Shown here piece after piece: positions 10,547 to 51,934 of a stretch of DNA of 64,000 bases. The translations under genes were made by a program, and so were the position numbers. This DNA is from Cornus controversa. Lineage: Eukaryota; Streptophyta; Magnoliopsida; Cornales; Cornaceae. Under the pieces are notes generated by a model. It was given only the letters and a program-made list of their open reading frames with translations. It did not search any database and was not told the origin of the DNA. Location: the NCBI GenBank assembly GCA_026545225.1, contig CM048848.1, positions 43,576,806 through 43,640,805 on the forward strand, in the 5' to 3' direction. The first letter of the stretch is position 1, and each line of letters begins with the position of its first letter.

Positions 10547-10592
<46 letters not shown>

Positions 10593-10881: not shown

Positions 10882-10886
10882 AAAAC

Positions 10887-12443: not shown

Positions 12444-12448
12444 AAAAT

Positions 12449-15839: not shown

Positions 15840-16628
15840 TCAAGTCTCCGCTTCATCCGTGACTTCAATTGAATCCCACTCCATGGTGTTCGCCACAGCA
15901 ACGTTATCCTTCAGTAGATTTGTCTGTATGAAAGTTGTTTCACCGCTTGAGTGTTCCACTTTTGAGTGCCAAGCCGGAAGCCATTTTGAGGTCATTACTT
16001 TGTAATAAACCCTATAAACAATAGCAATATCTTTTGAGCCCTGACCCTCCTCCTCATCAAACCCATGAGTTCTAACATACAGTTTCAAAGTGTCAAGGAT
16101 ATGAGTGTCCTTTAGTGACACTGGATAGTTTGGATAACAATTGAAATAAACTGGTCCATCACTGAGAGACGACTCCATAGTGGCTAATAGAGACTGTTTG
16201 AAGTTAAGACATCGGCCATCGCGAAGACAAACCAAAACAGATGAATTCAAACCATTTCTAGTTAAAGGCTTCACACCTACTTGTACTAATCCCTTGTAGA
16301 GGTACTCATACCGTCTTTTGTGCTCATTGATTGTGCGGCTTGCATGTAATCGAAACTCCACTTCGCATTCATTTGGGATTAAGACAGTTTTTTCTATTGT
16401 TTTGATCGCGTACCCACTTGAATTGAATTCAAAAATTCTTTTTTTGGGGAAAAATATATTACCCAGAAAAAAAATTGGTTTCTTATGGAAAAATTCATAA
16501 AGAGGGACCTCTGGAGGTTTCCAATCCTGAAGAAGTTTTACTACTACATCTTGCTCTTCACCATTTTCTGCACTACTAGTTGTAGTGCCCCTTGGACATC
16601 TAATGAGAGACCTAATCAAGTTTTCCAT
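15840..16628 (-). CDS. 30K-type movement-protein-like gene, copy 1 (looks whole)
   Basis: The 262-residue frame reads like the 30K movement-protein superfamily, closest in feel to the caulimovirid-type MP domain. Viral members bind nucleic acid and open plasmodesmata. The domain spans about residues 85-215. Key strings are YKGLVQVGVKPLTR (111-124), the LRDGR motif with the family's near-invariant Asp (135-139), SLLATMESSL (146-155), and GPVYFNCYPNYPVSL (158-172), followed by IAIVYRVYYK (201-210). The N-terminal 80 residues and the acidic C-terminus are not recognised. No signal peptide or membrane segment is seen. It looks whole. Related loci lie at 33352-33674 (partial) and 51158-51934 (about 80 % identical protein by eye). 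It could be an endogenous virus-derived copy or a host-kept derivative. The family assignment is by motif only. Confidence 0.7.
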   Translation of the reverse strand: MENLIRSLIRCPRGTTTSSAENGEEQDVVVKLLQDWKPPEVPLYEFFHKKPIFFLGNIFFPKKRIFEFNSSGYAIKTIEKTVLIPNECEVEFRLHASRTINEHKRRYEYLYKGLVQVGVKPLTRNGLNSSVLVCLRDGRCLNFKQSLLATMESSLSDGPVYFNCYPNYPVSLKDTHILDTLKLYVRTHGFDEEEGQGSKDIAIVYRVYYKVMTSKWLPAWHSKVEHSSGETTFIQTNLLKDNVAVANTMEWDSIEVTDEAET

Positions 16629-17082
16629 TTTTATTTAACGCTTTCAAATTATTAACAAAAGTAATACTTACATAACATAAAGTCGATCATAAACCAAACC
16701 GAAGACGAAGTGAAAAACAAAACAAAAATACAAAAATACACTTACTAGCTTGTTTGAAGACTTGAAATAAACCAAATACTGTAACAGTATATATAACGCC
16801 GCTAGCTACACACTGAACACTTATTAAATATGGGAGAATATTAATTTCTCGATACAGATCAAAGATAAATAGGCAAACTTTCGGACTTCAAAAACGGATT
16901 TCAGAGTTGTTGTAATTAAAGATAAGGTTGGTAAAGCAACTTTAATTTGGAAAGTTTTCTTGCCAGGCAAAATAGATTGACTTGACTCACAAGTCTTTGG
17001 GTACATAACTTGGCACCTTCTAAAATGACCTTTTCATTCTCCCACAAAGTAAAAAAACTAATTAATTAAATTAAACTTTTAT
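16629..17082 (-). promoter_or_regulatory. Upstream region of movement-protein-like copy 1, candidate TATA box and leader intron
   Basis: About 450 bases upstream of the ATG are conserved at all three loci (33675-34140 and 51935-52440). The minus strand carries a TATA-like TATATATA at 16788-16795 and a consensus splice donor GTAAGTG at 16745-16739, kept in all three copies (donor GT at 33790-33789 and 52049-52048). This suggests a short untranslated first exon and an intron ending just before the ATG. The acceptor is not clear (candidate AAAG about 20 bases upstream of the ATG). The open frame 16824-17006 within this region is not kept in the third copy. Confidence 0.4.
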
Positions 17083-17309
17083 TTGTGGACAATCTTTCTT
17101 TTTTCTTTCTATTTTCCATCTTTACCCTCCGTCAATCACCATTCACCACTCTCTCTCTCTAGAATTTTTTTCTCTTTGAATCACCCCCCACACAAACACC
17201 CTCTTTCACTCTTCCCACCACCATTGCCACCACCACGGCCACACTTTCTCTTTCTCTCCTCCCCCACAACCAAACCAGAGCTATTCGGCATGGGCAATTA
17301 ATTATCCCC
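17083..17309. other. Pyrimidine-rich low-complexity tract
   Basis: Plus-strand CT- and C-rich sequence (for example CTCTCTCTCT and CACCACCATTGCC) with a matching copy at 34140-34330. It resembles a plant 5' leader on the plus strand, but no gene follows. The only ATG after it is followed at once by a stop. Confidence 0.4.
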
Positions 17310-17815
17310 CAAGTGTCAGAAACGAAGGATTTTGTCCAACCTATGGGATTTGAGGTTGTTGCTGTGGAATGATTGGGGATATAGTGTTCCTGGGAAAAGT
17401 TTCATTTGTGGTTGGTCTAGCATCCTCACACCATTCACTTGACGAGTTTGACATCCCAATCTAGGCATTCGGGCCAAGTTTGACATTGGTATATTAACCT
17501 CATTTTCTATGTTTGGTGGTTGTCCTTTGAACATGTCCCACTGTTCAGACCAATGAGAAGCATAATGTTTTCATTCATCTGTCTGATCTATTGGATCAGT
17601 GGGGTAATAGTGCTTGAGGCGTTATTCCCTCTAATCTCCTAATCCAAAGGGTCTATTGCATTAGTGAAGCTATTTGTTACTTGCCCTTCCATATGAGAGA
17701 ACCTATCATTTAGATTCTGCCATTGGAATTGCTCGTTGATTTACTGTACGTCAATGTTTGGTAGAAGCTTAAGCTGAGGCTTCCCCGTCCTCTATTTGGT
17801 CAAAGTTATTAGCCA
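17310..17815 (-). pseudogene. Retroelement gag-like remnant
   Basis: Minus-strand peptide pieces such as NLNDRFSHMEGQVTNSF near 17640-17740, and a start-like MANNFDQIEDGEA at about 17815, look like a degraded retroelement gag. The frame 17316-17534 and its unit B copy (34358-34576) are similar to each other but not recognised. It is broken. Evidence is weak and rests on composition and the coiled-coil-like stretch. Confidence 0.3.
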
Positions 17816-18080
17816 TGAAAAGAGTAATTTTCTATAAATCTAGTCCTCAAGCTTTGGCTTGCGAACAATTCAAAGCAGGTATAAACAAGACAATTCAAGT
17901 CTTTCAACAAGGGTCCTACCAGGCATGCTAAAAGATGTTTGGTAGTAAAAAGAGTGGTGATGACCACCTCTCAGGCCTCCCTCACTCGTGGGAGGTGGCC
18001 TATTGGTTGGTTGTATGCGGGCGTGCCTGGCCAGTTAAGTCCAAGTTTGTGTGTTAAGACGCTTAGTCTCAGCTTGCTGG
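17816..18080. other. Intergenic tail of unit A
   Basis: Matches 34831-35095 in unit B (for example GTCCTACCAGGCATG and GGTGGCCTATTGGTTGG). No gene is seen. Homology to unit B ends near 18080 at the start of the LTR fragment. Confidence 0.6.
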
Positions 18081-18790
18081 GTGATAAGCAATGAATATTG
18101 CATATTCTATATCCCTAAAATTATATAAATTAGTATCTTAGTAATATTTCTTTCATATTTTTATTAATAATTTTAATCTTCTTATGATTTCAGGTGATTA
18201 AGGGTAATTCTGATTAATAATGGTGAAATCGGGTTACAAATGGTGCTCATTTAGTTATCACTGAAGCTTGACCCATAAGAGATATGTTTATATTGACGAT
18301 CTAAACTAAATGGACTGAAGAAATGGGCTGAAAAGGAATTTCAATGAAGAAAAGGAGCACGGGCCTATTTGCATTGAAGATTGGGCCAATTCAGGCCTAA
18401 AAAGTTCTGGACCCATTTTGGTATTCAGACCATAATTCCGTACACAATTTTTAAAACAACCCAAACTTCACATAAGTTGAAGAAAATTCAATTATGTACA
18501 ATTTCATATTTCACGAAAGTTTCCTAAAATGGACGTTTTCAGTAACTTTCTGCCCTATTTGCGTAGCTGCCACTTTTTGGACGCAAATGCCACTTTGTGA
18601 GGCGCAAGTGCCACTTTGGGAAGGCCAGGTGTCCCGTGGGTTTTGTTTCGCAAAGTAAAAATGGAGAAAACTGGGTATTCTGGAGAGAAGAAACACAGAG
18701 ATATAGACAGAGGCGATTTGTGATGATATGGGCAAGAAGATGGCGGTTTCATCATCGTTCAAGCTTGGACCTCCGATCATGAGCGGCTAA
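18081..18790 (+). mobile_element. Athila-type LTR fragment at the junction of units A and B
   Basis: Starts TGATAAGCAATGAATATTGC, similar to the starts of the other Athila-type LTRs here (TGATAAGTGTTGAATG at the 12449-13835 LTR and TGATAGGCGTTGAATG at the 40830-42324 LTR). Its last part has CATGAGCGGCTA, which is also in the latter LTR. It is shorter than those LTRs (about 710 against 1390-1500 bases), so it is partial. It sits exactly between the two duplicated units. Confidence 0.6.
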
Positions 18791-18942
18791 ACGTGGAAGG
18801 TTGCTCATATAAGAGACTATCTTGCTCCAACTCTGGAGCATAAAGGTGGGAGGAGTGCCACTGGATATCTCAAACGTCGTGAACTGGAAGTGTGCCCTCG
18901 TAGTAGGGCAATCACGAGAAAGGGGAATGGTAACTTCATCTT

Positions 18943-22335: not shown

Positions 22336-22340
22336 ATCTT

Positions 22341-23100
22341 AGCAACTCGTAGGCTGTTTTTAACAACCAACTGCTCCCATACCTTAAACATCTATCCCCA
22401 TATAATGGCCGGGACAGAGAACCAACATCCTACATTTAGGGCATACAGTGTAGTCAAAAACTCGCCCTGTCAATCTGTATGATGCCCTAAATGATGGGCA
22501 TTTTTCTGGAAGATCGTGTCAAAGAACCACAATCTTCTGGGGCAAAGAGACTTGGTAGTGCAAGTGTTCCTAGGGGGGTCGAAAAAATGGTTACGGCACA
22601 TGCTCTGAATCATGTCGAAAATAACAAGGTCCAAATCGAGATCACAGACTTGAGGATACTCCTCTGCAATATGAAGATCTTCGAGCTCCTCATGAGGACA
22701 CCCGGTAAGAGAAGCTATATCCTGTACGGTGAAAGCAAGAGAAACGCCATCCATAGTAGTCTTCAAAATACTCGACTCCTTATAGTTTTATGTCATGTTT
22801 ATGTAAAACAAATAAATGAGGCGGGGGTAATAGAGATTAGATGCAGGAATAAGGAGCCCAAGTAAATGGCGCTCGCACAATGCTGTAATGGACCATGAAG
22901 TATATGGGTCCTCGAGGAATGCGTCAATATCTACCATGTGCATGGGGTGGAAATCTCAATGCCCCCACTGGCCCCATGGAATATCTCTAATAAGAGCGGG
23001 TGGAACATCATCACCGTCCATATCTAGGGAAAAATTTAGTTCATAAATTATTCGGAAGCACATGGTGCATAACTCTCGGCAGCCTCTAGTTGGGGTTCTC
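22341..23100 (-). pseudogene. Accessory reading frame downstream of Athila-like pol, unit B, degraded
   Basis: Counterpart of 840-1790. The open part 22470-22766 reads TVQDIASLTGCPHEELEDL and RRLWFFDTIFQKNAHHLGH, which parallels GCPHECPADLSHIY and NHLWFLDAVLLKNVCPIGH in the 44121-45227 protein. It is therefore the same plant transposon-associated domain. It is broken and is cut from the element end by the nested solo LTR. Confidence 0.65.
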
Positions 23101-24030
23101 AAATCCACTCAAAACTCAAAATTTCTCTAAAACGATCCATTCCCTTCCAACCAAATCAAGTAGGCCAACAATCCCCCCAAAAATCCTCAAAAAAAAATTC
23201 AAAATCAACAATACCCATAACTACAACTTCACAAATACAACTCAAAAAGGGTCAAACAAAACCCTTACCTCTCACCGTTCGTATTTGAGCCTCAAAGGAT
23301 TATCCACGCGTATTAGTTCTTCCTTACACTTGAAATTGAAGAGATTTAGGAAGAAATTTAGGTTGGGAGTGTATTTGAGGGCTTCGGACGAGAGGGGGAG
23401 AAGAGAGAGTCACGAGAGAGAGGGAAAAAATGAGAGTGAGAAAGAGACGATTCGTATTTTAAGTGACTGCACATGTAGTCACGTGCCTCACTTCAATGCA
23501 TCAAAATACATGTATAAATGCATCGAAGTGGCTATGGATCGAAATAGAAGTTTCAATGCATTAAATTTGAGATGCATCGAACATCTATCGAAATAAGGAG
23601 CGAAAGTTGCTGGAAATTAAATCTAAATAGGACTTTTAAAGATCGATGCATCAAAGTTGATTTTTATGCATCTAAGGTTCGATGCATCGAAGTTAGGGCT
23701 TCAATGCATCAAAGTGCCTTATAATTGTGATTTTACAAAATTGTCTCAAATGTTTAAACTTTTGCTCAATTCTCAAAATTACACCTCTCACACTTAGATA
23801 CATTTAAAAATATTTAGATACATTCCTTTTTGGATTCAAAGGGTCACACGGAACATGATAGGACCGCAAAAATGCCAAGTTTACAGCCTATGGCGAAACG
23901 TGAAATAAATTATAGGTCCAAATATACGGGATCTACCAATTCGATGATATCCACGTATTCGATTTGCATTCGGCTATCAATGCAAGCTTTCACCATTTGC
24001 CCGTTAACCTTAAAGAGTGTTCCAGCCATG
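23101..24030. other. Spacer with ATGCATCGAA repeats, unit B
   Basis: Counterpart of 1791-2528, somewhat longer. Motif copies lie near 23490-23600 and, denser, at 23640-23720 (GATGCATCAAAG, GATGCATCGAAG and variants). No gene is supported; the 23090-23596 open frame is low-complexity spacer. Confidence 0.55.
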
Positions 24031-24370
24031 GGATCCTTTAGATCCACCGCTTTGTGGGGAGCAATGGAATTGGTAATGAAATGACCGTCCCATTAGGAAT
24101 GAAGTTTCCCGAGAAATAGGCGAAGGTTAGAATTATAAAGCCAAACTTTTTGGCCCGAAGAGAGTGATTTGGAATGAATATAACGATCATGGAAGGCCTT
24201 GGTCTTGGAGTTATAGATTTTCGTGCTTTCATACTCGTTGTTCCGTATTTCCTCTAACCTACTCAATTGAGGCTTCTAGTTAGAGCCGGCCAATTTCATA
24301 TCGAAATTGAACTTTTTAATAGTCCAAAAGACTTTGTGCTTAAGCTCAAATAGTAAATGACATGCCTTAC
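24031..24370 (-). pseudogene. Integrase C-terminal remnant, unit B
   Basis: Aligned with unit A 2515-2850 (for example the shared CAAGGCCTTCCATGA segment read in reverse). It is a broken integrase C-terminal part, next to the LTR at 24371. Confidence 0.6.
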
Positions 24371-25592
24371 TGATCGGCGTTGAATGTTACGCATTCTTGC
24401 CTCTTAATTTACATATTTTATTCTCTTAGTAATAATTTATATGTGATTTTACTCTATTTTTGTGTTTTCTGTCTTTTTCAGGGCTTAAATGATTATTTCA
24501 GATAAAACCATGATTTTGGGCTTTTAAATATGATATCCAAGAAGGTTATATGAAACTTACATCTAATGGGTCCATTCAACTCCATATTTCAACTCAAATC
24601 AGCCCAAGGAAGAGGTTTAAGAGAATTATAACTGCTTAAGAAGGTTACGGGCCTGAAGCCCAATTCTGTACTTAATCCAGTTTTAATCCTGTTTTAAAAA
24701 ATAGATCAAAAGTCTTATTTTTGAGCATCAATTCGACTTAATTCCTATTAAGGTTGAACGAAATTCGATTCTGGACACTTTTGTATTTCACGTAAATTTC
24801 GTGAATCGGACTTCTACTAGGTCAAAACTTGGGCCGAATGTTAGCAGAAAAATATACCTATTTAGGGTTACGGGAAAATCCTAATTATCTCCTAATTGGA
24901 TTAGGATTTTATCCCCTAATTGGATTAGGACTTTATGTATTCTCTTGGGGTATAAAGAGGTGAATTGGAGGCTATTTTGGGGGAACAAAGAAGTGGAGGC
25001 CAGGGCAAAGAAGACAGAGATAATCCAGGTTTTATTTATTCATTTTGTCTTTTATTATTTTGTTATCTTCTTCTTCTACTATGTGTAACTAAATTCCTCA
25101 ACTAGGGTTGAGGAGGAACCCTCCATTAATGAAGTGAAGTTCTTTTGTTCATTAATTGATTCTCATGTGTGTGATTTAATTGCTTATGATTTTTGCTTCT
25201 TGGGATTAATTATTTTATAATTCTTTCACCATCTATATCATGCATATGTGGTAGTTAGAAAGTATTATAATTAATCTAAGCTTGGGTTTGTATTTCTTAA
25301 AAGTGATAATATTTGATCTTATGTTTTTCATTAAATTGGATACATAGGATGCTTAGAGTTTTACACTAGTGAAGCGAAGGAAAATCTACCTTTTAATATA
25401 TTTTTCATAGTGCTTTATTGTTAAATCTTCAGTAAGCAATAGATTGATTTCTCGATTGCTACTCTAACTTTGGGAATTAATAAATGAATATTAGAAACTT
25501 TATGGATTTAATGGTGGTGGAATCCAAAACCTTAGTTATTTGATTTCAATAGTGTTATTTTATTTTCATGTTAGTTTAATATATTTCTCTCA
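24371..25592 (+). mobile_element. Athila-type LTR inserted in the integrase end of unit B
   Basis: Starts TGATCGGCGTTGAATGTTAC and ends near TTCTCTCA at about 25592. Its first ~600 bases strongly resemble the inverted LTR at 40830-42324 (TGATAGGCGTTGAATG, then TTCTCTTAGTAATA, then CCTAATTGGATTAGGACTTT). No internal protein region and no clear target duplication are seen. It is a solo LTR or LTR-derived piece. Confidence 0.7.
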
Positions 25593-26941
25593 CATCGATG
25601 GATGATTTGGTCGGGACAATACTTGAATAGATAAGGATCATCCCAAAAATATGAACGTATTTGGGAATGGAAGCGATCATTTTTCCGTTTGGACCAAGAG
25701 GATGGGATCTTCCTGCTTGCTAGCAAAGTAAGGAAGTTTCTCATGAGTGACTTCAAATAGTTGCTCATCCGAAAAGGATTCACTAACTAAAATTTGGTTG
25801 TAATGGCACTATAAAAGAATCTGAGATAAATGGTCGACGACCATATTCTCAGTACCATTTTTATTCCGGATCTCAAAATTGAACTCTTGTAACAAGAGTA
25901 TCCATCAGATCAGCCAGGTTTAGTATCCTTTTTGGCCAATAAGTGCCGAAGACCGGCATGATCAGAGAAGATAATGACCTTGGATCCTAAGAGATAAGAT
26001 CTAACTTTGTCCAAGACATAAACAACTGCAAGTAATTCCTTTTCTGTAGTTGTATAATTTATGTGAGCGTCAAAAATGGATTTAATTGCATAATAAATAA
26101 CATACGACAACTTATCTACACGTTGCCCAAAGACAGCACCCATAGCAAAATCAGATATGTCACACATGACCTCAAATGGGAGAGCCCAATTTGGAGGGAG
26201 TAGAATTGGAACAGTTGACAGAAGCGTACAGAGTGTTTCAAAAGAATTAAGGCACGCTTCATCAAAGTGAAAAGAAATGTCCTTCTCAAGAAGTTGGCAC
26301 AAAGGCCAAGATATCTTGTTGAAGTTCTTGATGAAATGGCAATAAAAACCCGCATGCCCAAGGAATGAACGAATGCCCCTCATTGATGAAAGTGGAGGAA
26401 ACTTTGATATGAGTTCTACCTCAGCTTTATCAACTTCTATACCTTGTTTGGACATAATATGCTCAAGTACAATTCCCTCTTAAACCATGAAATGGCTCTT
26501 TTTCCAACTCAAAATAAGATTTGTGTCCTTACAATGCTCGAGTACAAGTGTAAGATTATGAAGACACGAATCAAAGTAAGGTCCAAAGACTGAAAAGTTG
26601 TCCATAAACACTTCAAGGAACTTCTCCACCATGTCTGAAAAAATAAACATCATAGACCATTAAAAAGTTGTCGGTGCATTGCATAACCCAAAAGGCATGC
26701 GTCTATAAGCAAATATTCCGAATGCACATATGAAGGTGATTTTTTATTGGTCTTGCAGGTCTACTATGACTTGATTATATTTAGAATATCCATTTAAAAA
26801 ATAGTAAAAACTTTGGGCCGCAACCCTCTCTAGGATTTGATCAATAAATGGGAGTGAGAAATGATTCTTCCTAGTTAAGGAGTTTAGTTTCCTATAGTCA
26901 ATGCACACTCTCCAGTCTGTGGTGGTGCATTGAGGAACTAA
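25593..26941 (-). pseudogene. Athila-like RT and RNase H region, unit B, broken
   Basis: Counterpart of 3632-4965. The frame at 25910-26455 (181 residues) reads SKQGIEVDKAEVELIS through to the RNase H strings NYTTTEKELLAVVYVL and FSDHAGLRHLLAKKD. It is broken in several places. Confidence 0.8.
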
Positions 26942-28500
26942 TTATCCTTGTTCATTTAGAAGCACAGGGATGCCTGATTTCTTTGGCACCACTTGTGTGC
27001 GGCTTACCCACTTGCTATCAGAGATGGGGTATATAATACCAGCATCTAGCAGCTTGATAACTTCTTTCATAACTACCTCCTTCATATTAGGGTTTAACCT
27101 ACGTTGCACAACTTGCGAGGTCTTTGCATCCTCTTCCAAATATATGTGGTGCATACAAATGGAAGGGTCAATGCCTTTTAAGTCAGCAACGATCCACCCT
27201 ATAGCTCCTTTGTGATTTTTTAAGACCATTATGAATGAATACTCTTGGTTATCTGTTAGATTTGAAGGTATGATGACCGATAAAGTGTCACTTAGGTCAA
27301 GAAACACATACTTGAGATTAGACGGCAAAGTCTTAAGCTCCAGTTGTAGGGGAGACACAAGGGATGGAATTGGAGAAGTACTTGAAAGAGTAGGAAGAGG
27401 CTCGAATGGTGTCTTCCACATGGGAAAGTCATTTATGACCGTGGCATTAAGCATTAATTGTATTTACATCTTTAATTGATTGCTCGATGTACAAGTCTTC
27501 AAAATTAAATTAACTCAGACATGCCCCTAAAGGATCTTTTGACAAGACTTGGAGAAGTATCTCTTCCACAAGTTCATCCACACCATCCACATAAAAGCAA
27601 TCACTTTCATCATTGGAGATGTGATGGGATGCATTGAAGATATTCAACCTCACAGTCATATTCTCGAAGGAGATGTCCATCACCCCGATACGGTAATTAA
27701 TGCAAGCATTAGTCGTAGCCAAGAAAGAATAACCTAGAATAATCCGAATATGCCTTGTAGGATCTTGGACAGGTTCGGTATCAAGGACTATGAAGTCCAC
27801 CAAAAAATAGAATTTGTCCACTTTGATTAGAATATCTTCAATTACACCATAAGGTTGCTTTACCGATCGGTCGGCAAGTTGCAATACAATTATGGGTAGC
27901 GTAAGTTCTCTTAGCTCTAATTTTTGATAAACTGAGTAAGGAAGTAACTTAACACCTACTCCCAAGTTAAGGTGGGCCCTCTCAAATTCGTGGTCACCAA
28001 TGACACAAAATATTGTCGGGGCACCCGGATCCTTGAATTTTGGAGGGGTGTTATGTTGAAGAATTGAGCTTACTTGCTCAGTCAGATAGACCTTCTTAGG
28101 AACTTGGTTCCTAGATTTATGCTTTTGAGTGCATAGGTCCTTAAAAAATTTAGCATATGATGAAATTTGCCTTATAGCATCTAGGAGAGGAAGATTGATT
28201 TTAACTTGTTTAAAAATTTCTATCATATCTTGAAATTTCTCTCCTTGCTTCCCAAATTGAGTAGATTCCCTTAATCTTTGTGCAAAGAGAATTCGAGGTT
28301 CAAATGAAGCTTCTTGAATTGGAATTGATGAAAATTCAGCTTCATTTTTCTTTCCTTTTTCTTTTGGATTATTAGAAGTCTCTTTTAGATTTATAGGAAA
28401 ATCATTTGGATTTAAAATGGAAATTTTTGGATTCATCAAACGCTTACATTTTTTCTCTCTTATCTTATCAACCGGATTCTCTTAAACTTAACCACTCCTT
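26942..28500 (-). pseudogene. Athila-like gag end, protease and RT linker, unit B, broken
   Basis: The long frame 27510-28439 (309 residues) runs from the gag tail (SSIPIQEASFEPRI) through the protease region (LLPYSVYQKLELREL, then LQLADRSVKQPYGVIEDI). The frame 26942-27454 continues with the pre-RT linker. It is better preserved than unit A's equivalent (5155-5938 plus 6220-6414). Confidence 0.8.
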
Positions 28501-30317
28501 AAAGTAGTAATTGATTTAGTTTGGTCTTGAGTAAACTCAAAAGACGGGGAAGCATCTCCATCTACTTGTCCTTTACGATTTGCCACCATTTGGCTAGGCA
28601 ATTTTTTACCCTCTCGCTGATTCATTGCATTAGCTAGCTATCCTAATTAGGATTCTATCTTTGCAATAGATTGTGAGTGGGCGTTGATCTTTTGAGTATT
28701 GCTTTCAATGTTGCCCAAGGCAACCAAAACTTTATCCTCAAAACTGGGGATTCGAGGAGGTGGTTAATTGGGAGTGTAATAAAAACTCGAATTTGGATTT
28801 GATTAATAAAGTCTAGCTTATAATTGAGATTGATCTTGATGTCCATGTGGTCCCCGAGGTCCTTGATGTTGACCTTGGTTTCCATATTGGAATTGATTTT
28901 GATCCCTCCATCCGGGATTATAGGAGTTTTGATAAAAACCTTGACCCGACCTAGAATAAAGTACATTTGCTTGTTCTTGTAAAAATTTAGGGTATTACTG
29001 TAATACCCCGCTCCAACACATGGTATGATATTGTCCGCTTTGGGCCTGAGCCCGCACGGTTTTGCTCTTGGGTTTACCCCAAAAGGCCTCATACCATTTG
29101 AAGAGAACATACTACATATAAGCACATCCCCTTTTTCACACCCAGGCGATGTGGGATTGAGCACCCTGTACCCTATCAGTGTGATAGCTCAGCCCAGTGT
29201 CTGTCTATGCACCCGCCCACTCACATCCGTCCACAAGGGTTTCTACAATTGCCCCACATGAGGACAATCCGTTATATAATGAGAAGAACTAGAGCAAAAA
29301 GAACACACATATCATACGCTGGATGAAGAATATGATTAGGAATAGTAGGAAGAGAGGAAGAAGAAGAAGACTCGGCTAACATAACTTCGGCAAGTTTCTT
29401 TTTTAAGGCTTCTATCTTCCTATCAGTTGATTGCTCCTTACGCATTTCAAAAATACTTTCAGTTTGGGCGTTATGAGGATAAAGTACCTTATTCTTCATT
29501 TTATTAGAAGAACGATGAGACAAATTTTTACTCAAGTTCTCAAAGAGAATCCACACTTTATCGGGACTTTTTATAAAGAATGTACCCTCACAACTAGTAT
29601 CTACCATTTGCTTGTAGGGTTCTCTTAAACCATCATAAAATCCTTACACCAATTGCCATTTGAAAATAGCATGGTCTGGGCATGACCTCAAAAGGTACTT
29701 CATTCTTTCCCATATTTAATGAAAAACTTCTCCTTCCTTTTGAGAGAAACCAATGATAGCTCTCCGCGCATCATTAGTATTTCCTATTGGAGAGTATTTC
29801 TTTAGAAACTCTCGTTGCATTTCTACCCAAGAGCTAATGAAACTTGGCTCTAAGTAATTAAACTATTGTTTGGCTTTATCCTTAAGTGAGAAGGGGAAAA
29901 GACAAAGTCTTAAGTTGTCTTCCGCTTGAGAGTTCAACTGCAAAGTCGAACACACTTCTAAGAATTTATCTATCTGTTTATAAGGATCTTGGTTAGGAAG
30001 TCTGTGAAAATAATTTAGAAAATTAATTGTGGAGGATTTGATTTCAAAATTATTCCTCCCCATATTTGGAAAACAAATACAAGAAGGGGATGCATAGGTA
30101 GATGGAACATAAAAATCTGAAGAACCTCACCACCCGGTGGGAGTGGTAAAATAGAATTTTGTTAAACATTTGGCTTATCATTATTTGTCATGATTTCTCT
30201 CCTATGTTCTCTAAACAATATAGAGTCCCTAGGGACACTACTATATTGTCTAAGAGTTCTTTTGAGTTCAAGATCACACGGCAACAAAGGTAATGACAAC
30301 GATCTCCTACCTTGCAT
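28501..30317 (-). pseudogene. Athila-like gag, unit B, broken
   Basis: Counterpart of 10887-12181 and 6462-6699. The start ATG is at 30315-30317. Capsid-core strings occur near 29863-30063 (FHRLPNQDPYKQIDKFLEVC and LRLCLFPFSLKDKAKQ). The TRIM-like LTR at 28999-29247 interrupts it. Confidence 0.75.
28999..29247 (+). mobile_element. TRIM-like solo LTR, 249 bp
   Basis: Begins TGTAATACCCCGCTCC and ends GGGTTTCTACA. It is flanked by a near-perfect 5-bp target duplication ATTAC/ATTGC (28994-28998 and 29248-29252). Unit A shows the empty site (near 11135-11160, TTTAGGGTATTGCCCC). The core ATTGTCCGCTTTGGGCC and AAAAGGCCTCATACCA are words I recall as recurring in short non-coding LTRs (TRIMs) of many eudicots. 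The family name is not assigned. Confidence 0.75.
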
Positions 30318-30587
30318 GTGAACAAAACAAAATCTAAGCTATATGCAAAAACACAAATTTAAACACTTAAGTGCAAGGAAATTAGGTATTATACTCACAA
30401 AAAATCCGAGCTTAAGTCCCAACGCTTTGAATATATAAATACCTAAAATAAAGTACTTAACAAATAAGAACAAAAATAATTACAATTAAAGAATTAATGT
30501 AAACAATGAGTTAGGTTAAAAATTAAATAGACTCAGTCTTCTACTTTTAGCTATCAAATCGTAGTCCCCACCAACGGCGCAAAAAAT

Positions 30588-32010
30588 TGTTGTGTGTCGG
30601 CAATTTATATTTATATTTTATAACTCGCAATAGAACGAATACTTGAAGGATAAGGTTCTGAGTTGAGGGTGTTGGTCCCACAAAGACTACATAGGAATAA
30701 TTTGCTAAAAGTAGAAGGTTGGTTCTCGTTTAATTCACAAACAAATTTTTGGGTTGTTTATTTATTCTACTTAAAAACATAAATGATAATTAAAATGCGG
30801 AGTTTGAGAAAAGAGTAAGGCACTAGGATTAAGATGTCACCACTAGCCTCATAGTGTGTCAAACTTATAATAAATTAGGGAATTCATGCAAATGTGTACT
30901 AAACGGTGCAAATGGCTTGTGGCCTACAATGCTACCGTCAATAGGATACATGCACCTTAAAATACTATAGTCCATCTTCAATACATGTAAATTTCCTACC
31001 TACCTACTTACCTAATTGCCTAATTAACTAAGTATAGCTAATTTACCATCTCTTAGCATGAATTATGCAAATCTAGCTATGCATGTTAAAATGAAAGCTA
31101 GTACCAAGCCATCACTTGTACTCCTTGTGGAACTACAAATGTTTGAAGATCATGTGAAGAAAATAAGTATTCTAAGATAAGAAAGATAAATTATACACAT
31201 GAACATAAGAAATTTATAAACTTATATTACTTATAAGGCTCAAGGCAATGTACAAATACACAAAAATTACATAGAAATTCCAATTCACTAAAATTAGAAC
31301 ATATTTACAAGACTAGGGTTTGTCAAAATCTTAGAGAATGATTAGTTGATCATGGTGGGCTGGAAGCACTCCATAGACAGAGGTGAATCCATGCTCAAAA
31401 CAATCTTTAACGCCTTACAAAGCCCTCTTTGAAGCTTTCCCTCTCTAGAACTTCACTTTCTCTCTCTAAAATTCTATATATGATCTCTAGCTATTACAAG
31501 AATTGTGATATATATCTCTATCACATATTTTTTATCTATATATCTGACTTGAGGCTTAAAAGATCACTAAAATTTTGTCCTAAGGATCCTTCTAGAAGAA
31601 TCTGGACAAGTGGCCAAGTGTAGAAAATATCTTCAAAATAATATCTTCTGCAGGAATTTGAGATGCATCGAAGCGGGTACTTCGATGCATCAAAGCTTTG
31701 ATGCATCGAAGCGGGTACTTCGATGCATTGATCTTCCCTTGCTCTGTAATCTTTCACCTCTTCAACTTCCCGACTCCGGTCTAGACACGTCATTCACTAT
31801 TCCTTGATGCATGTATCTCTTCAATGAAATACGATCGAATATAGGATTGCATTCTTAAACTGATAAAGGAGTCGAATTATGCTAAATTCTGAGTTTGAAC
31901 CTAAAATCACTAAAAATATAAAAACACGTAAAACTTATACAATATGTACATCTATGGGATTTAAATACATAAGTAAAGGCGCGAGAATGTATAACATTCA
32001 ATGCTTATCA
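30588..32010 (-). mobile_element. 5' LTR of the unit B Athila-like element
   Basis: Plus-strand start TGTTGTGTGTCGGC, end ATGCTTATCA; 1423 bases, next to the primer-binding site at 30565-30582. It contains the densest ATGCATCGAA cluster (31660-31735, spacing about 24). It is homologous to 12449-13835. Confidence 0.8.
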
Positions 32011-33351
32011 AAGAGCCATTGATGAACAGTGAGGTTGGGTTCAAAATAGTTGAAGATGAAGGATTACAACATAGTTTTAGAATTGTAGTGAGAGAGAGAG
32101 AGTCTTAGTTGGTAATTTAGTAAATAATTTTAGAAACAAGAGGGCAGAGAGAGAGGTCAAGAACTGATTTGGGCTAGGGTCAGGAAAAGAGGGAGAGTGA
32201 GTTTATGGGCTTTAAGGTAATTTAGTAATATTTTATATCAAAAATCAATTAAATAATAAAGGACAATCAAAACATTTCATAACATTTTTAAATGAAAGAG
32301 AGATGTTTGTGATAAAATGTTGCAAAATTATATTTGAGTATAATAAGGTCAAACTTCAGGGTGTCCGTGATATTTAACCTTATATTTTTTTCTAAATGGA
32401 TGAATAAAAATATATTTAAGTATTAAATAAATTAAAATTCATACCATATAAAATATGTGAGAAGAGAAAGTAAAATTAAAAATATATATAATACAAGTCA
32501 AAAATATAATTTTTAAAGAAATAAAAAAATATATGTTATAGTAATATTAATAAACAAAAATAAATTACATTCTTTTTAATGAATTTTACATTTTTAATTC
32601 AAATACCATTTAAAATATATATAATTTTTGGAGGCATAGTTTATCAAGGAGCAGCCTTGAGACAAGGGTTTGATTCCCCTTACAATGAGACCTTTTTTTT
32701 TTCGCTAAAAACTTAAGCTTGATCGCAGGTTGGTTGGTCTCTCAAAATATCGGCGCAAACCATGGTTTGGAGAGTGTTTTAAAGAGAACTTTGTGACCAT
32801 AGAAGGAGGGAAGTGTTTTTAAAGTGAATTTTTACTGTGAACATAATCTAGACTTTGAGTGAGCTACATAAATATTTGTGTTCTTTTTGTATGATAAGTG
32901 TTTACGTTTTCTGTCAATTTCTTGATTGTGTGTTTGATTCGGAGTATTCAGCTGAATGGGTATGGTGTACATACATTAACTAAATAGTTCCTTGTTGGTT
33001 CTTTCCTAGCCACCTTCCCACTATGTCGAGAGAAGCTTCGTAGCAAATGCATCGTCGGTAGAGGTGGCCAAGGAATTCATACTTTGGGCCCAAAGAGAAA
33101 TATATAAATGATATTATGGTGCTAAGAGGAAAGGACAAGTGAGTGGGACATGTCAAGGACGACTTGTGGTAGACTTTGTGCTTCAGTTGTGTGAAAAAAA
33201 TAAGCTTTTGCAACAAAAAATCGTTGTAGTGTCTACCATGAGTGCGCTCAACTGTGATTTCTTTCCTTTTTTCTTTTTCTTTTTCTACCGGATAGGGAGA
33301 GGGGTTTTAATGCATTGATGAAATACATAATCAAGGAACACAAAGGAAAGG
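32011..33351. other. Flank of unit B Athila-like element, near-identical to unit A
   Basis: Corresponds to 14107-15447 at a constant offset of 17904, with no length change. From about 32194 to 33351 I see only about one base difference, far fewer than in neighbouring sequence. It includes the conserved block of 15060-15200. No gene is supported. Confidence 0.8.
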
Positions 33352-33674
33352 TACTCATACCATCTTTTGTGCTCATTGATTGCGCGGCTTGCATGTAATC
33401 GAAACTCGACTTCGCATTCATTTGGAATTGAGACAGTTTTTTCTATTGTTTTGATCACGTAGCCACTTGAATTGAATTCAAAATTTCTTTTTTTGTGGAA
33501 AATATTACCCAGAAAAAAAATTGGTTTCTGATGGAAAAATTCATAAAGAGGGACCTCTGGAGGTTTCCAATCCTGAAGAAGTTTTACTACTACATCTTGC
33601 TCTTCACCATTTTCTGCACTACTAGTTGTAGTGCCCCTTCGACATCTAATGAGAGACCTAATCAAGTTTTCCAT
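33352..33674 (-). pseudogene. 30K-type movement-protein-like gene, copy 2 (partial, broken)
   Basis: The minus strand holds only the N-terminal part of the gene found whole at 15840-16628: MENLIRSLIRC at 33674 and down to about residue 105 (SIPNECEVEFRLHASRAIN). The conserved LRDxR core is not present. It is broken, and any longer frame running left of this is not homologous. The upstream region matches copy 1 at roughly 5 % divergence by eye, including the splice-donor-like site. Confidence 0.75.
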
Positions 33675-34357
33675 TTTTATTTAACGCTTTTAAATTATTA
33701 ACAAAATAATACTTACATAACATAAAGTCGATCATAAACCAAACCGAAGACGAAGTGAAAAACAAAACAAAAATACAAAAATACACTTACTAGCTTGTTT
33801 GAACATTTGAAATAAACCCAATACTGTAACAGTATATATAACGCCGCTAACTACACACTGAACACTTATTAAATATGGGAGAATATTAATTTCTCGATAC
33901 AGAGCGAAGATAAATAGGCAAACTTTCGGACTTCAAAAACGGATTTCAAAGTTGTTGTAATTAAAGATAAGGTTGGTAAAGCAACTTTAGTTTGGAAAGT
34001 TTTTTTGCCAGGCAAATTAGATTGACTTGACTCACAACAAGTCTTTGGGTACATAACTTGGCACCTTCTAATTAAAATGACCTTTTTATTCTCCAACAAA
34101 CTAAAAAAATTAATTAATTAAATTAAACTTTTATTAGTGGACAATATTTCTTTTTTCTTTCTATTTTCCATCTTTACCCTCCGCCAATCACCATTCACCA
34201 CTCCCTCTCTCTAGAATTTTTTTCTCTTTGAATCACCCCCCACACAAACACCCTCTTTCACTCTTCCCACCACAACGACCACACTTTCTCTCTCTCTCTC
34301 CTCCCCCACAACCAAACTAAAGCTATTGGACAAGGGCAATTAATTACCCCTCAAGTG
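33675..34357 (-). promoter_or_regulatory. Upstream region of copy 2 and pyrimidine-rich tract
   Basis: Counterpart of 16629-17309: splice-donor-like GTAAGTG (donor GT at 33790-33789), TATA-like run near 33834-33842, then the CT-rich tract at 34140-34330. It has probably lost its role with the partial gene, though transcription could persist. Confidence 0.4.
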
Positions 34358-34830
34358 TCAGAAACAAAGGATTTTGTCCAACCTCTGGGATTTGAGGTTG
34401 CTACTGTGGAATGATTGGGGGTATAGTGTTCCTAGGAAAAGTTTCATTTGTGGCTGGTCTGGCATCCTCACACCATTCACTTGACGAATTTGTCGTCTCA
34501 ATCTAGGCATTCGGGCGAAGTTCGACATTGGTATATTAACCTTATGTTCCATGTTTGGTGGTTGTCCTTCGAACATGTCCCACTGTTTTGACCAATGAGA
34601 ACCATAATGTTCTCATTCATCTGTCAGATCTCTTGGATCAGTGGGGAAATAGTGTTTGAGGTGTTGTTTCCTCTAATCTCCTAGACCAAAGGGTCTATTG
34701 CCTTTCTATATGAGAGAACCTATCATTCAAATTCTACCATTGGAATTGCTCGTTGATTTGTTGTACTTTAATGTTTGGGAGAAGCTTAAGCTGAGGCTCC
34801 CCATCCTCTATTTAGTCAAAGTTCTTAGCC
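34358..34830 (-). pseudogene. Retroelement gag-like remnant, unit B
   Basis: Counterpart of 17310-17815. The frame 34358-34576 (VNGVRMPDQPQMKLFLG inside) is similar to that at 17316-17534. It is broken and its family is not certain. Confidence 0.3.
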
Positions 34831-35099
34831 ATGAAAAGAGTAATTTTCTGTAAATCTAGTCCTCGAGCTCTGGCTTGCGAAAGCTTCAAAGCAGGTATAA
34901 ACCAGACAAATCAAGTCTTTCAACAAGGGTCCTACCGGGCATGCCAAAAGATGTTTGGTAGTAAAAAGAGTGGTGATGATGACCTCTCAGGCCTCCCTCA
35001 CTCTTCGGAGGTGGCCTATTGGTTGGTTGTATGCGGGCGTGCCAGGACAGTTAAGTCTAAGTTTGTGTGCTAAGACGCTAAGTCTCAACTTGTTGGGTA

Positions 35100-37856: not shown

Positions 37857-37893
<37 letters not shown>

Positions 37894-38998: not shown

Positions 38999-39228
38999 TA
39001 TTCCTCCATAAAAAAAGGAATTCTTTCCTCAGAATTCACATCATACTTGAAATATAAGGCTCTGGATATCTTGCCTTTTTTTTCTTCCACCCTTTTCCAA
39101 GTGGACTCCACCTCATTGTGGTGGCTCCACTGAACTCGAGCTAAAGGAATAGTCTTGGAAAGAAGGACCTGGTTCCTATGGTCAAGAATATAGTAAGGTT
39201 GTTCCACATATGTTGCATCTAGCTGCAA
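38999..39228 (-). pseudogene. Chromodomain at the end of Tekay-type pol
   Basis: The minus strand reads QPYYILDHRNQVLLSKTIPL and VQWSHHNEVESTWKRVEE, the chromodomain block of plant Tekay elements, which guides integration to marked chromatin. It lies directly next to the 3' LTR. It is part of a broken polyprotein. Confidence 0.8.
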
Positions 39229-42324: not shown

Positions 42325-42337
42325 CACCCCCAAACTT

Positions 42338-45227: not shown

Positions 45228-45290
45228 AGAAGTAGAAAAAGTGTGGTTGAGGAATTAAATCGAACACTTGGCGTGCACAATTAACTTGTA

Positions 45291-46860: not shown

Positions 46861-46999
46861 GAGAATCAATACCCTAATAATAGACTAAAATGTATGGAGT
46901 ACAATGAGTCCTAAACTTAGATTCTATTTATCAGAATACGCAACGCAAAAGATACCGTACAACGAACCCTAAAGACCCAAGAATACTTGAACCTTGAAT

Positions 47000-47011
47000 G
47001 CTCTAATACCA
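47000..47011 (-). other. Primer-binding site (tRNA-iMet type) of the Tekay-type element
   Basis: The minus strand reads TGGTATTAGAGC just inside the 5' LTR (47014). This is one base off the complement of the initiator tRNA-Met 3' end, the usual primer of this lineage. Confidence 0.8.
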
Positions 47012-47013
47012 AC

Positions 47014-48874
47014 TAAAATACCCCCTACAATTTCATGCATGAGGTGGGCAGTTTCACACATAAAACATAAGAAATATCTACAACTGATAGCATACAAGCA
47101 TAGAATACAAGGACAAAAGAAAGAAATAATTATAAATGATGAAAAGAAAGTCTAACTGAAATAAATATTAATTTTAAATAAACAGAATACGAAATTTGAA
47201 TGATACAACTTGGAAGTCTCGTAACTCAAGGACCCCTTAACCAAAAATTATAAAAGTAAATACTTTATGAAAAGATCTAAGTCCCTACAACGAAGTCTAG
47301 TAAGGAATAGATGACTGTCATGCCCCATGAACTCCACGCTCTAACCTCGAGGTGGAAACTGGCTAGGACATGAAATATCAACAAAGTTGGTTAAACGCAC
47401 GAGCAAGTTCCCTCTACTACCACCCAGTAGAGGACCGATAAAATACCCTCTATATGAGGGACAATAAAATACATAGAAATATACGTATCATTTCCTCATT
47501 TACGCCTATCCCAAAATAGAAACCAACCGTACCGACCCATCCATTATTACACAAATTATATAACCTATTTTCTAAGTTCACTCCAAATCCAATCCTTACA
47601 TGCCCGAACACTTTATTAAATGTATACTCTATTGATATAAGGCAATCCTGACATGCCTGTCAATCCTGACATACCTCCCTTATTATTATTTAATACCTTA
47701 TTACGTATTTGGCAATCCTGACATGCCTCTCATATTAACATTGAATACCTTATTAGGTATTTGGATATCTTGACATGCCTGACAATCCTGACATGCCTCC
47801 CTTATTAACAATGAATACCTTATTAGGTATTTGGAAATCCTAACATGCCTCTCTATCCTGACATGCCTCCCTTATTAACATTGAATACCTTATTAGGTAT
47901 TTGGCAATCCTAACATGCCTGACAATCCTAACATGCCTCCCTTATGTCTTTTAAATAATAATTAAACATATTTAAAAGCATGCTAATTAATATCATGAAA
48001 ATTCTATCGCACATAAATTAATTAAATAAATAAAATAACATAACATAACATAACACGAAAGTAAACGAGTTTAACATACTCTCATACTGATTTAAATATC
48101 ACAGAATTAATCAAACACGTTTATGATGGCAAAGAAACAACTAAAGAAAATAAAAACTAATTAAAAAGAAAAAAAAACCAAACAACCAAGCCTTCATTGC
48201 AATTTAAACATCAAGTATATTTAAACCTAGCTCTAACCTAGGTTATTGTGCATATTCTGTCTTTAAAAATCTTATTTTATTTTTTACGAATTTTTTGAAA
48301 TTTTGTGGTAATTTAAAATATTTTTTCTAATTTTCTACATTTTAAAATGATTTAAAATTAAAATATATATATATTTAAATATTCTGAACTGGGGCCAAAC
48401 TAGGCCAGGTGGTTGGGCTAGGCGAGTGGGACCGGACTGTCCTTTTTTCGATCCCGGCTGGCCACCAGAGATGGCCCCATGCGCGCCACGCGCTGGTGCG
48501 CTTGGGCATTGCGCAGCGCTAGGGCTTCTTCTTCCCCAGCGCCCCTTTATTGTTTAGCGCGTAGCAACGCGCGTACCACCTTTTTCCTAATCAGTTTCCG
48601 GACACTTTCTGGCCCCGTTCACCTCCATTTTTACACAAAACTTCTCCTGTTGATCTAAGCTACCTATTGGTAAAAAGATCCCCTCCATCCGCGGCCTAAA
48701 TCAAAATAGCCCAAATTCAAGTTTTAGGATTCTTCAAATTCAAACTCGAAATTTCGTCAAATTACCTAACGATTTACAACCAAACTAACAAGGATTATTT
48801 AGGAGAGCAAGATAAACAATTTAATCGAAACAAAATCCTTCAAAAATAGCATTAACATTCATCACAAATTTCAT

Positions 48875-48924
<50 letters not shown>

Positions 48925-49643
48925 GCCTATATACTTATATATACACGTATTTACATATAAGAATTTACACCAAAATACTACCAAATTCACAGATTATTCA
49001 TGTAATCAAATAAAAGTCCCCTTAACATTCATATTCATACTAACACGTAATTATATACATGTATATACATATAATCAAACAATACAAATATTTATTTATG
49101 TTTACAAGTTCAAAGGGGAAGTGAAGAGATTGAACTTACCTTATGATTTTGAACAAAATCATCTTCTCCCTTTTCTGGCGTCTACCGTTCTCTTCTAGTC
49201 TGTGCGTATAAACTCTCTGTGCGTAGGAACTACTGAATCCTAATTTTATTTTCTCTTTATTATATTATTTTTCTTTTCTAAAATTACTAGAAAATTTTTT
49301 AAATAATATAAATAAATGTATTTAGCCCACCTATATATAAATATATATATAGCCCAACCCAATAATCTAGCCTAACCTGAAAATAATTAAAAATAAACAA
49401 AAGAAAATCCAACCCAAAATCCACATATTTTATTTAAAAGAAAAATTTACATTTAAAACAAATATTTCACAAATATTTAAAGTCAATCAACACTTAATAC
49501 CAATTAATCAACCATCAACATTAAACAAAATAAAAACAACAGGCATTTACAAAAATTTACTAAAATATTTAAAACACCACACAATTAACAATTTAAATAA
49601 TTAAAATTTTAAATTAAATATTCTCAAATTCCAAAGTATTACA
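47014..49643 (-). mobile_element. 5' LTR of the Tekay-type element
   Basis: Plus-strand start TAAAATACCCCC, end AAGTATTACA; 2630 bases. Array of about four ~51-base units at 47640-47945 and a TA run at 48870-48920. By eye about 10 % different from 36427-38998. Confidence 0.85.
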
Positions 49644-49648
49644 ATTGA

Positions 49649-51157
49649 TTTTTAAAACAAGACGTGGGGTCGGTTTTGAATAGACCTTTGTACTTCTGTT
49701 CTCTTTTTCTACGTGGCAAAAGCTTAGTCTTAGTTGACCGGCCAAATGTGTAATTTGGATGCAAACAGGGTGTTTAATGTTTTTTTTTATTTTTTATTTT
49801 TTATTTTTTAATTGTGTGTTTGATACGCAGTATTTGTCACAACAGCGGATATAGGGATAGTTCATAGCCATGTCGCTCAGCAGTGTACATATATTACCTA
49901 CGTTGCTCCTTGCTGGTTCTTTCCTAGCCACCTTCCCACTATGTCGAGAGAAGCTTCATAGCTAATGCGTCATCGGTAGAGGTGGCTAAGGAATTGATAC
50001 TTTGGGCCCAAAGAGATAAATAAATGAGATTATGCTGCTAACAAGAAAGGACAAGTGATCGAGTGGGACATTCGGTAGACTTTGCAAATTGATGTTTATA
50101 AGAAAAATATTTAGAATTATATATCAATCTCTATTTGTTAAATGACAAATTGAAAGGAAAAAAAGTAAATATTGTGAGATTGTAAACCATAAAAATAATC
50201 GTATATACTAAAATTTTTAATAGTCATTTACTAACAAATAACAAATTTTATGACTAATTTCTCTATAAGTCACTAAAAAAATAATATTGTTTTGTTAAAA
50301 CTTGTGAGATTTTGTTTAGTTAAAATCATTATTTTTTTTAATCTTTCATCTATGTAAAATAATATATCTTACCGAAGTGGAATCAAATTACTCAAAATCT
50401 TTTTCTAAACATTAAATTTTTGAAAAACTGAAACAATTCATTGTTGAAGGAAAATTGGTGCCCTAATTTTTTTTTCTTTACCTCTTCATTTTTTAGTTGT
50501 AACTGATCATTTTACCTTCTCAATTTTTTTCTTTCTCACATCAATTTTTCGTCTAATTATTTAATTTGCATTTTTCTCAATTTAATTTTTTTTTCTTGAA
50601 CAATTTTCTCAAGATATATACACTATAACTAATATTTTAAAAAATTATATTACTATTGGTTGCTAATAATTTTAACTTTTAATTACATAATGCAAATTTG
50701 GCTCCCCAAAGTAAATTTTCTCACTCCGCCCTGATTGTAGCAAAAGGTTATGAGTGCGCTGAACTATGATTTCTATCATTTTCTTTTCTTCTTTTTCTCA
50801 TAAAAAGAGATATATAAATGATAAAAAAAAAAGGGTTTTATTGCATTTATAAAATACATGATCGAGCACCACGAAAGAAAGGCAACTAAAAACCAACCAT
50901 AACCAAACTAGTTGCAAAAAAGTAGTCCTAACAAATATCAAATATACAAAACTGATACAAGCAATTCTTAATCGCATATATAGGCATCAATAAGAAAGGA
51001 TTTATAATCATCCAGCCACCGAAAGCATCACCAACACTTTATTTGCTAATTGCCAACAGACTAGTAACTATGTGTGTTGTTTGATAAATACTCTAACAAT
51101 TTCCAAGTAAATACGAACTCTCTCATGCTGAGTAGTATAGCTAGCTAGGCTTGATAT
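49649..51157. other. Intergenic region 3' of the third movement-protein-like gene
   Basis: From about 49820 to 50100 it matches the conserved block downstream of copy 1 (CCTTCCCACTATGTCGAGAG is shared). At 50827-50900 one copy of the GCATTGATGAAATACATGA-type repeat found twice near 15384-15541 is present. The stretch 50100-50750 is AT-rich with no gene seen. Confidence 0.6.
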
Positions 51158-51934
51158 TCAAGTCTCCGCTTCATCTGCGACTTCAATTGAATCCCATTCC
51201 ATGGTGTTGGCCACAGCAACATTATCCTTCAGTAGATTCGTCTGTATGAAAGTTGTGTTCCGGCTTGTGTGTGACACTTTTGAGTGTGAAGCACCAAGCC
51301 ATCTTGAGGTCATTACTTTGTAATAAACCCTATAAACAATAGCAACATCTTGTGAACCCTGACCCTCCTCATCAGACCCATGAGTTCTAACATACAGCTT
51401 AAAAGTATCAAGGGCATCCTTTAGCCACACTGAATAGTTTGGATAACAATTGAAATAAACTGGCCCATCACAGAGAGAAGACTCCATGGTGGCTAATAGA
51501 GAATCTTTGAACCTAAGAAATCGATCATCGCGAAGACAAACCAACACAGATGTATTCAAACCTTTTCTAGTTAAAGGCTTCACTCCTACTTGTACTAATC
51601 CCATATGGAGGTCCTCATACCATATCTTGTGCAATTTGATTGCGCGGCTTGCATGTAATTGAAACTCGACTTCGCATTCATTTGGGATTGAGACGGTCTT
51701 TTCTATGGTTTTGAACGCGTAGCCACATGAATCAAATTCAAAAATTCTTTTTTTGTGGAAAACATCACCAAAAAAAAAAGTTGCTTTCTTATGGAAAACA
51801 TCATAGAGGGGGATCTCTGGAGGTTTCCAATCCTGAAGAAGTTTTACTACCACATCTTGCTCTTCACCATTTTCTGCACTACTAGTTGTAGTGCCCCTTG
51901 GACATCTAAGGAGAGACCTAATCAAGTTTTCCAT
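51158..51934 (-). CDS. 30K-type movement-protein-like gene, copy 3 (looks whole)
   Basis: The 258-residue minus-strand frame is about 80 % identical by eye to copy 1. The core is strongly conserved: LHMGLVQVGVKPLTRKGLN, the LRDDR motif with the family's conserved Asp, SLLATMESSL, GPVYFNCYPNYSVWL and VAIVYRVYYKVMTSRW. The N-terminus (MENLIRSLLRCPRGTTTSS) and C-terminus (ANTMEWDSIEVADEAET) are nearly identical to copy 1. Differences cluster at about residues 40-115 and 215-235. It looks whole. Viral relatives move nucleic acid through plasmodesmata; whether this protein does so is unknown. The start is supported by the shared ATG and upstream sequence of all three loci. Confidence 0.7.
   Translation of the reverse strand: MENLIRSLLRCPRGTTTSSAENGEEQDVVVKLLQDWKPPEIPLYDVFHKKATFFFGDVFHKKRIFEFDSCGYAFKTIEKTVSIPNECEVEFQLHASRAIKLHKIWYEDLHMGLVQVGVKPLTRKGLNTSVLVCLRDDRFLRFKDSLLATMESSLCDGPVYFNCYPNYSVWLKDALDTFKLYVRTHGSDEEGQGSQDVAIVYRVYYKVMTSRWLGASHSKVSHTSRNTTFIQTNLLKDNVAVANTMEWDSIEVADEAET

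What the first reader, a model, noticed from the sequence alone, without database searches (positions are those of the whole stretch)
15840..51934. Three tandem loci of a 30K movement-protein-like gene, two apparently whole
The minus-strand proteins at 15840-16628 (262 residues) and 51158-51934 (258 residues) carry the LRDxR motif, the SLLATMESSL block and the GPVYFNCYPNY block in the order of viral 30K movement proteins. A third partial copy lies at 33352-33674. The two whole copies are separated by old transposons and differ by about 20 % in protein, yet both are open and their core, N- and C-termini are conserved. No capsid, RT or replicase of a caulimovirid lies beside them. This would fit a virus-derived gene kept by the host as a family, perhaps acting at plasmodesmata; it would equally fit a relic of unusual integrity.
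Basis: partly seen in the sequence, partly recalled or inferred. Interest (0 to 1): 0.8.

Follow-up and report, generated by a model that had tools for sequence, protein, structure and literature searches.

The report
Plant-kept viral movement-protein gene family
A plant genome carries a small tandem family of a gene that came from a plant virus's cell-to-cell movement gene; two copies are still intact and look preserved by natural selection, and close relatives occur in several other asterid plants.

Summary
Two whole minus-strand ORFs (15840-16628, 262 aa; 51158-51934, 258 aa) match Pfam MP (PF01107, 8e-20 and 9e-17). A third copy (33285-33674) lost its C-terminal part to a deletion. The copies lie in local segmental duplications, so they diverged inside the plant genome. 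The coding part has been constrained: dN/dS about 0.4 (LRT against 1, p = 0.0002); coding indels are 3 of 3 in frame against 3 of 13 in the flanks; neutral simulation leaves both ORFs open in 1 of 4000 runs at K = 0.2. In a tree of 184 homologues the copies fall in a 20-row clade (SH-aLRT 99) of MP proteins, 19 of them short; all 16 named rows are asterids. I read this as a caulimovirid-type MP captured by a plant and kept as a host gene, amplified locally more than once. Expression, synteny and function at plasmodesmata were not tested. Endogenous MP genes and one Arabidopsis MP fusion are already in print; this asterid family was in none of my seven paper searches, but the key 2015 paper is not held.

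The parts
15840..16628 (-). Copy 1, whole MP-like gene, 262 aa
   Evidence: PF01107 8e-20; ORF
51158..51934 (-). Copy 3, whole MP-like gene, 258 aa
   Evidence: PF01107 9.4e-17; ORF
33285..33674 (-). Copy 2, truncated MP-like gene (129-aa ORF, homologous over 33352-33674)
16641..16745 (-). Candidate leader (5' UTR) intron of copy 1, 105 nt, holds all 3 upstream ATGs after the TATA-like site
   Evidence: pattern match only
33687..33790 (-). Candidate leader intron of copy 2, 104 nt; one further upstream ATG lies outside it
   Evidence: pattern match only
51947..52049 (-). Candidate leader intron of copy 3, 103 nt, holds all 5 upstream ATGs after the TATA-like site
   Evidence: pattern match only
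16790..16795 (-). TATA-like site of copy 1, about 167 nt before the ATG (similar sites at about -166 in copy 2 and -174 in copy 3)
   Evidence: pattern match only
980..18082 (.). Segment holding copy 1, duplicated (in pieces) at 22337-35098
   Evidence: self-BLAST pieces of 91-93%, one of 99%; about 6702-10880 is not matched there
22337..35098 (.). Segment holding truncated copy 2
47016..52453 (.). Segment holding copy 3; matches 36429-38984 (84-88%) and the gene regions of copies 1 and 2 (82-84%)

Best explanation
A host gene family derived from the 30K movement protein (MP) of a caulimovirid-like virus. The MP part alone persists in the plant genome, has been kept by purifying selection after duplication, and has been amplified locally here and, it seems, separately in Cornus and Diospyros. 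Shown: family and fold; duplication together with flanking sequence inside the genome; constraint on the coding part; one supported clade with asterid proteins. Inferred: vertical descent from one capture before the asterid orders split (about 0.5), transcription, and function. Proposed mechanism: the jelly-roll core still reaches plasmodesmata and meets the partners of viral MPs (PDLPs for tubule-forming MPs), while the long tail that in viral MPs contacts virions or coat protein is missing; the protein would act there as a host factor, either as a competitive decoy against viral MPs (about 0.25) or as an adjuster of plasmodesmal traffic (about 0.25). The confidence below is for 'retained, functional host gene of viral MP origin'.
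For: PF01107 hits. Copies lie in segmental duplications with homologous flanks. dN/dS 0.38 (NG86) and 0.40 (ML), LRT against 1 p = 0.0002. K2P 0.114 in the CDS against 0.166 and 0.215 in the flanks; indels 3 of 3 in frame in the CDS, 3 of 13 in the flanks; both ORFs stop-free in 12, 1 and 0 of 4000 neutral runs at K 0.15, 0.20, 0.25. Each copy keeps 41 of 43 columns invariant in 14 relatives. The 30K aspartate is kept in 20 of 20 clade rows. Clade support 99/97 with 17 of 36 rows and SH-aLRT 99 with 20 of 184 rows. Jelly-roll model, mean pLDDT 80.8. PDLPs bind the tubule-forming MPs of GFLV and CaMV (PMC2944810, passages); MP C-terminal regions mostly serve CP and virion contacts (PMC10306228, passages).
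Against: No transcript was examined. Clade members are patchy: among the listed hits asterids such as Helianthus, Tanacetum, Lonicera, Rhododendron, Withania and Solanum show only MPs outside the clade. Davidia does not group with Cornus in the tree, though a Cornales clade is not rejected (p-AU 0.353). omega 0.4 is moderate; codons 1-42 (p = 0.25) and 43-111 (p = 0.063) alone are not significant, nor are the comparisons with copy 2 (p = 0.15, 0.12). One of three copies is broken. For AtMP, a review says lower expression increased resistance to an RNA virus (PMC10377300, passages), which does not favour a protective decoy.
Confidence: 0.72

Rival explanations
1. Repeated endogenisation: an asterid-infecting caulimovirid lineage with a short MP on its own ORF was integrated several times; genes of different orders are not orthologues and the similarity between orders was kept in the virus.
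For: Caulimovirid MPs are integrated widely in plants (PMC8346255, passages); deep branches within the clade are weakly resolved and Davidia and Ilex do not sit with their host relatives; distribution is patchy.
Against: The constraint between copies 1 and 3 arose after duplication in the genome. No viral contig relative was confirmed in IMG/VR (46 pattern stretches, none confirmed). Camellia groups with Diospyros (99/97) and the window copies with Cornus (100/100).
Confidence: 0.3
2. Relic of unusual integrity: a decaying viral fragment whose two whole copies are open by luck.
For: One copy is truncated; transposon remains surround the locus; no expression data.
Against: dN/dS test; in-frame indels and neutral simulation; fewer differences at conserved columns, 7 of 86 against 38 of 172, p = 0.005.
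Confidence: 0.08
3. The locus works at RNA level, as a source of small RNAs that silence related viruses, and not through a protein.
For: [quoted passage not shown] the locus is multi-copy.
Against: Selection acts on the protein reading; the three copies are in one orientation, not an inverted repeat.
Confidence: 0.05

Closest known systems
Endogenous 30K MP genes of vascular plants (Mushegian and Elena 2015; not held, known second-hand from PMC8346255 passages)
   Same: Integrated MP-like genes, reported as widespread and transcribed
   Different: They are reported with positive selection in several cases; here purifying selection is measured between copies duplicated in the host. Whether that paper includes this asterid clade I could not check
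AtMP of Arabidopsis thaliana, fusion of At1g37113 with a caulimovirid-derived MP (Carrasco et al. 2019, not held; described in PMC10377300 passages)
   Same: Caulimovirid MP sequence retained as a plant gene with a reported phenotype on down-regulation
   Different: AtMP is a fusion in one species; here the gene stands alone, is tandem, and has relatives in several asterid orders
Caulimovirid MPs and MP-bearing polyproteins
   Same: PF01107, jelly-roll core, conserved D; best named structural matches are caulimovirid
   Different: Of 96 rows outside the clade that reach the core-tryptophan column, 70 run more than 30 residues further; 19 of 20 clade rows end 9-25 residues after it. Some of the 26 short outside rows may be cut by contig ends

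Membership tests
30K movement-protein superfamily (PF01107) | Significant match to the curated MP profile | tested here: met
   8e-20 and 9.4e-17, above cutoff
30K movement-protein superfamily (PF01107) | Conserved aspartate of the D-motif | tested here: met
   D at position 137 in 20 of 20 clade rows and 165 of 172 other rows; motif as described in PMC10306228 passages
30K movement-protein superfamily (PF01107) | Single jelly-roll fold | tested here: met
30K movement-protein superfamily (PF01107) | Localises to plasmodesmata and supports movement | not testable with these tools
Endogenous caulimovirid (provirus-like element) | Capsid, protease or RT of Caulimoviridae linked to the MP | tested here: inconclusive
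   None recognised in 19 other ORFs scanned; not every ORF was scanned and decayed parts can be missed; RT/RNase H ORFs elsewhere in the window were not classified by a test
Host-retained (domesticated) viral gene | Purifying selection after integration | tested here: met
   omega 0.40, p = 0.0002, between copies duplicated in the genome
Host-retained (domesticated) viral gene | Orthologues at the same place in related species | not testable with these tools
   No other plant genome DNA at hand; the protein clade is indirect
Host-retained (domesticated) viral gene | Expression from a host-type transcription unit | not tested
   Only TATA-like and splice-like patterns; isoform labels of Camellia and Diospyros records hint at transcript-based models, which I did not verify

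The most novel reading that the evidence does not exclude
One capture of a caulimovirid movement-protein gene before the asterid orders diverged founded a vertically inherited plant protein family, kept by purifying selection, amplified in tandem in several lineages, lost in others, and in Salvia perhaps joined to a small heat-shock domain: an order-spanning case of plants turning a virus's own movement protein into a plasmodesmal, possibly antiviral, protein.
Probability: 0.45. Interest if true: 0.82.

Novelty: new member of a known kind. Interest (0 to 1): 0.62.

Why it matters
A 2023 review says there is little evidence so far that plants domesticated caulimovirid genes, with AtMP as the main case (PMC10377300, passages). 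A family that is constrained within one genome and has close relatives across asterid orders makes the question directly testable: is it expressed, does it reach plasmodesmata, and does losing it change development or virus spread?

Tried and rejected
Chance ORF or plain relic: disfavoured. Linked caulimovirid provirus: no partner recognised in 19 other ORFs (9; 10 of the 40 non-MP stop-to-stop ORFs of 65 aa or more around copies 1 and 3, lists); one sub-cutoff match (REP_ORF2-G2P, E 0.051, at 54031-54309) was set aside. More MP pieces in the window: none at E <= 1e-3; lenient hits (best E 0.008) were short and scattered and not followed. Solved structures by sequence: none (best E 0.67). IMG/VR: 46 pattern stretches, none confirmed. 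Upstream window -200 to -300 looks better kept (5 of 83 differing), but windows were arbitrary, so no claim. Lotus LOC130721237 (243 aa) was considered as a clade member; it falls outside, on a long branch. Seven paper searches listed no paper that I could recognise as treating this asterid family; I saw listings of these and passages of six papers.
Full report
What is there. The window holds two complete minus-strand ORFs of 262 and 258 codons (15840-16628 and 51158-51934) that match the Pfam viral movement protein (MP) family with 71.7 and 61.7 bits (cutoff 23) and are 81% identical. A third copy (ORF 33285-33674, homologous part 33352-33674) keeps only the N-terminal 107 residues; the counterpart of copy 1 positions 15448-16299 is missing. 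No further piece was found at E <= 1e-3 with 193 query proteins.

How the copies arose. Much of the window is local segmental duplication: 980-18082 against 22337-35098 in pieces of 91-93% and one of 99% (about 6702-10880 has no counterpart there), 36429-38984 against 47016-49630 at 84-88%, and 15480-17045 against 50828-52349 at 83.6%. Flanking non-coding sequence went along with the gene, so the copies diverged in the plant genome and not in a virus. One tract next to the truncated copy (14262-15447 against 32166-33351) has 2 differences in 1186 aligned bases while neighbouring tracts have K2P 0.062 and 0.074, which points to a recent exchange or conversion; it ends at the deletion breakpoint.

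Constraint. Between copies 1 and 3, NG86 gives dS 0.238 and dN 0.091 over 258 codons; a pairwise ML codon model of my own gives omega 0.40 and rejects omega = 1 (LRT 13.83, p = 0.0002). Parts: codons 1-42 omega 0.30 (p = 0.25, four differences), 43-111 0.45 (p = 0.063), 112-end 0.37 (p = 0.002). Comparisons with truncated copy 2 are not significant (omega 0.42 and 0.52, p = 0.15 and 0.12). The CDS has K2P 0.114 against 0.166 upstream and 0.215 downstream; its three indels are all multiples of three, against 3 of 13 in the flanks; neutral substitution from copy 1 leaves both descendants open in 12, 1 and 0 of 4000 runs at K 0.15, 0.20 and 0.25 (the simulation starts from copy 1, not the ancestor, and ignores indels). 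Each copy keeps 41 of 43 columns invariant in 14 other clade members, and the copies differ at 7 of 86 conserved against 38 of 172 other columns (Fisher p = 0.005).

Relatives. The best hits are Cornus florida LOC132295070 and LOC132295071 (66 and 64%), Davidia involucrata, Ilex paraguariensis and Escallonia rubra. In a careful tree of 36 rows chosen by me, the window copies and 15 others form a clade with 99/97 support. In a quick tree of 184 of 193 rows it has 20 members with SH-aLRT 99, Salvia among them on a long branch of unsure place. Sixteen of the 20 are named and all 16 are asterids; two are the window copies, two are unnamed. The lineages of Cornales, Escallonia, Ilex and Davidia were looked up; those of Camellia, Diospyros and Salvia are recalled. 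Outside the clade lie other plant MPs, asterid ones included (Tanacetum, Helianthus, Lonicera, Rhododendron, Withania, Solanum). The tree follows hosts in part: Camellia with Diospyros 99/97, window copies with Cornus 100/100. A Cornales clade with Davidia was neither recovered nor rejected (p-AU 0.353), nor was Ilex with Escallonia and P0009 (0.126). The window copies pair with each other and the Cornus copies with each other, so duplication or conversion took place separately in each lineage. Nineteen of 20 clade rows end 9-25 residues after the core tryptophan column (the Salvia row continues into HSP20); of 96 other rows reaching it, 70 run more than 30 residues further.

Gene anatomy. The copies share a TATA-like site about 165-175 nt before the ATG and a candidate leader intron of 103-105 nt with a GTAAGTG donor. 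In copies 1 and 3 it holds all upstream ATGs after the TATA-like site (3 and 5); truncated copy 2 has one more outside it. This is pattern evidence only. Of 9 other long ORFs scanned, three gave RT/RNase H domains and one a plant transposon domain below its cutoff; of 10 short ORFs around copies 1 and 3, none gave a match above cutoff.

Mechanism. Shown: a 30K MP gene, duplicated and constrained within a plant genome, in a clade with other asterid proteins. Inferred: it is transcribed and its product goes to plasmodesmata. PDLPs bind the tubule-forming MPs of GFLV and CaMV and promote movement (PMC2944810, passages); MP C-terminal regions mostly serve CP or virion contacts (PMC10306228, passages). 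A host MP with the core but no long tail could occupy the same partners without carrying virions, hence the decoy idea; a role in normal traffic is as open. Against a simple protective role, lower AtMP is said to increase resistance to an RNA virus (PMC10377300, passages).

Comparison and novelty. Integrated, transcribed MP genes in most vascular plants are known (Mushegian and Elena 2015, second-hand through PMC8346255, where positive selection is reported for several), and AtMP is the named domestication candidate. In seven paper searches I found no account of this asterid family or of purifying selection after in-host duplication of an MP gene; the 2015 and 2019 papers are not held, so prior description is possible. 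I rate it a new member of a known kind, and keep as the bold reading one ancient capture with order-spanning retention.

Limits. The window's own genome could not be searched. No plant DNA beyond the window was at hand, so synteny, expression and deep codon tests are missing. The patchy distribution may be loss, repeated capture or missing annotation. The source organism is not identified; the nearest named relatives are Cornus proteins.

Noticed in passing
P0184, Salvia miltiorrhiza LOC131005947: One predicted protein of 343 aa with an MP domain (1.2e-9) followed by an HSP20 domain (2.8e-25), inside the asterid clade on a long branch: real fusion or merged gene model.
   Followed up: partly
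14262-15447 and 32166-33351: Near-identical tract (2 of 1186 differing) between duplicated segments otherwise about 91-93% alike, ending at the deletion in copy 2: recent exchange or conversion.
   Followed up: partly
7526-8725: Tandem array of about 69-base units; a 128-aa ORF runs through it.
   Followed up: no
8593-10372 and 19471-21459: Inverted repeat pair of 79-89% identity flanking the copy 1 region.
   Followed up: no
59691-60650: 319-aa ORF without a Pfam match at E <= 0.01; looks transposase-like to me, an impression only.
   Followed up: no
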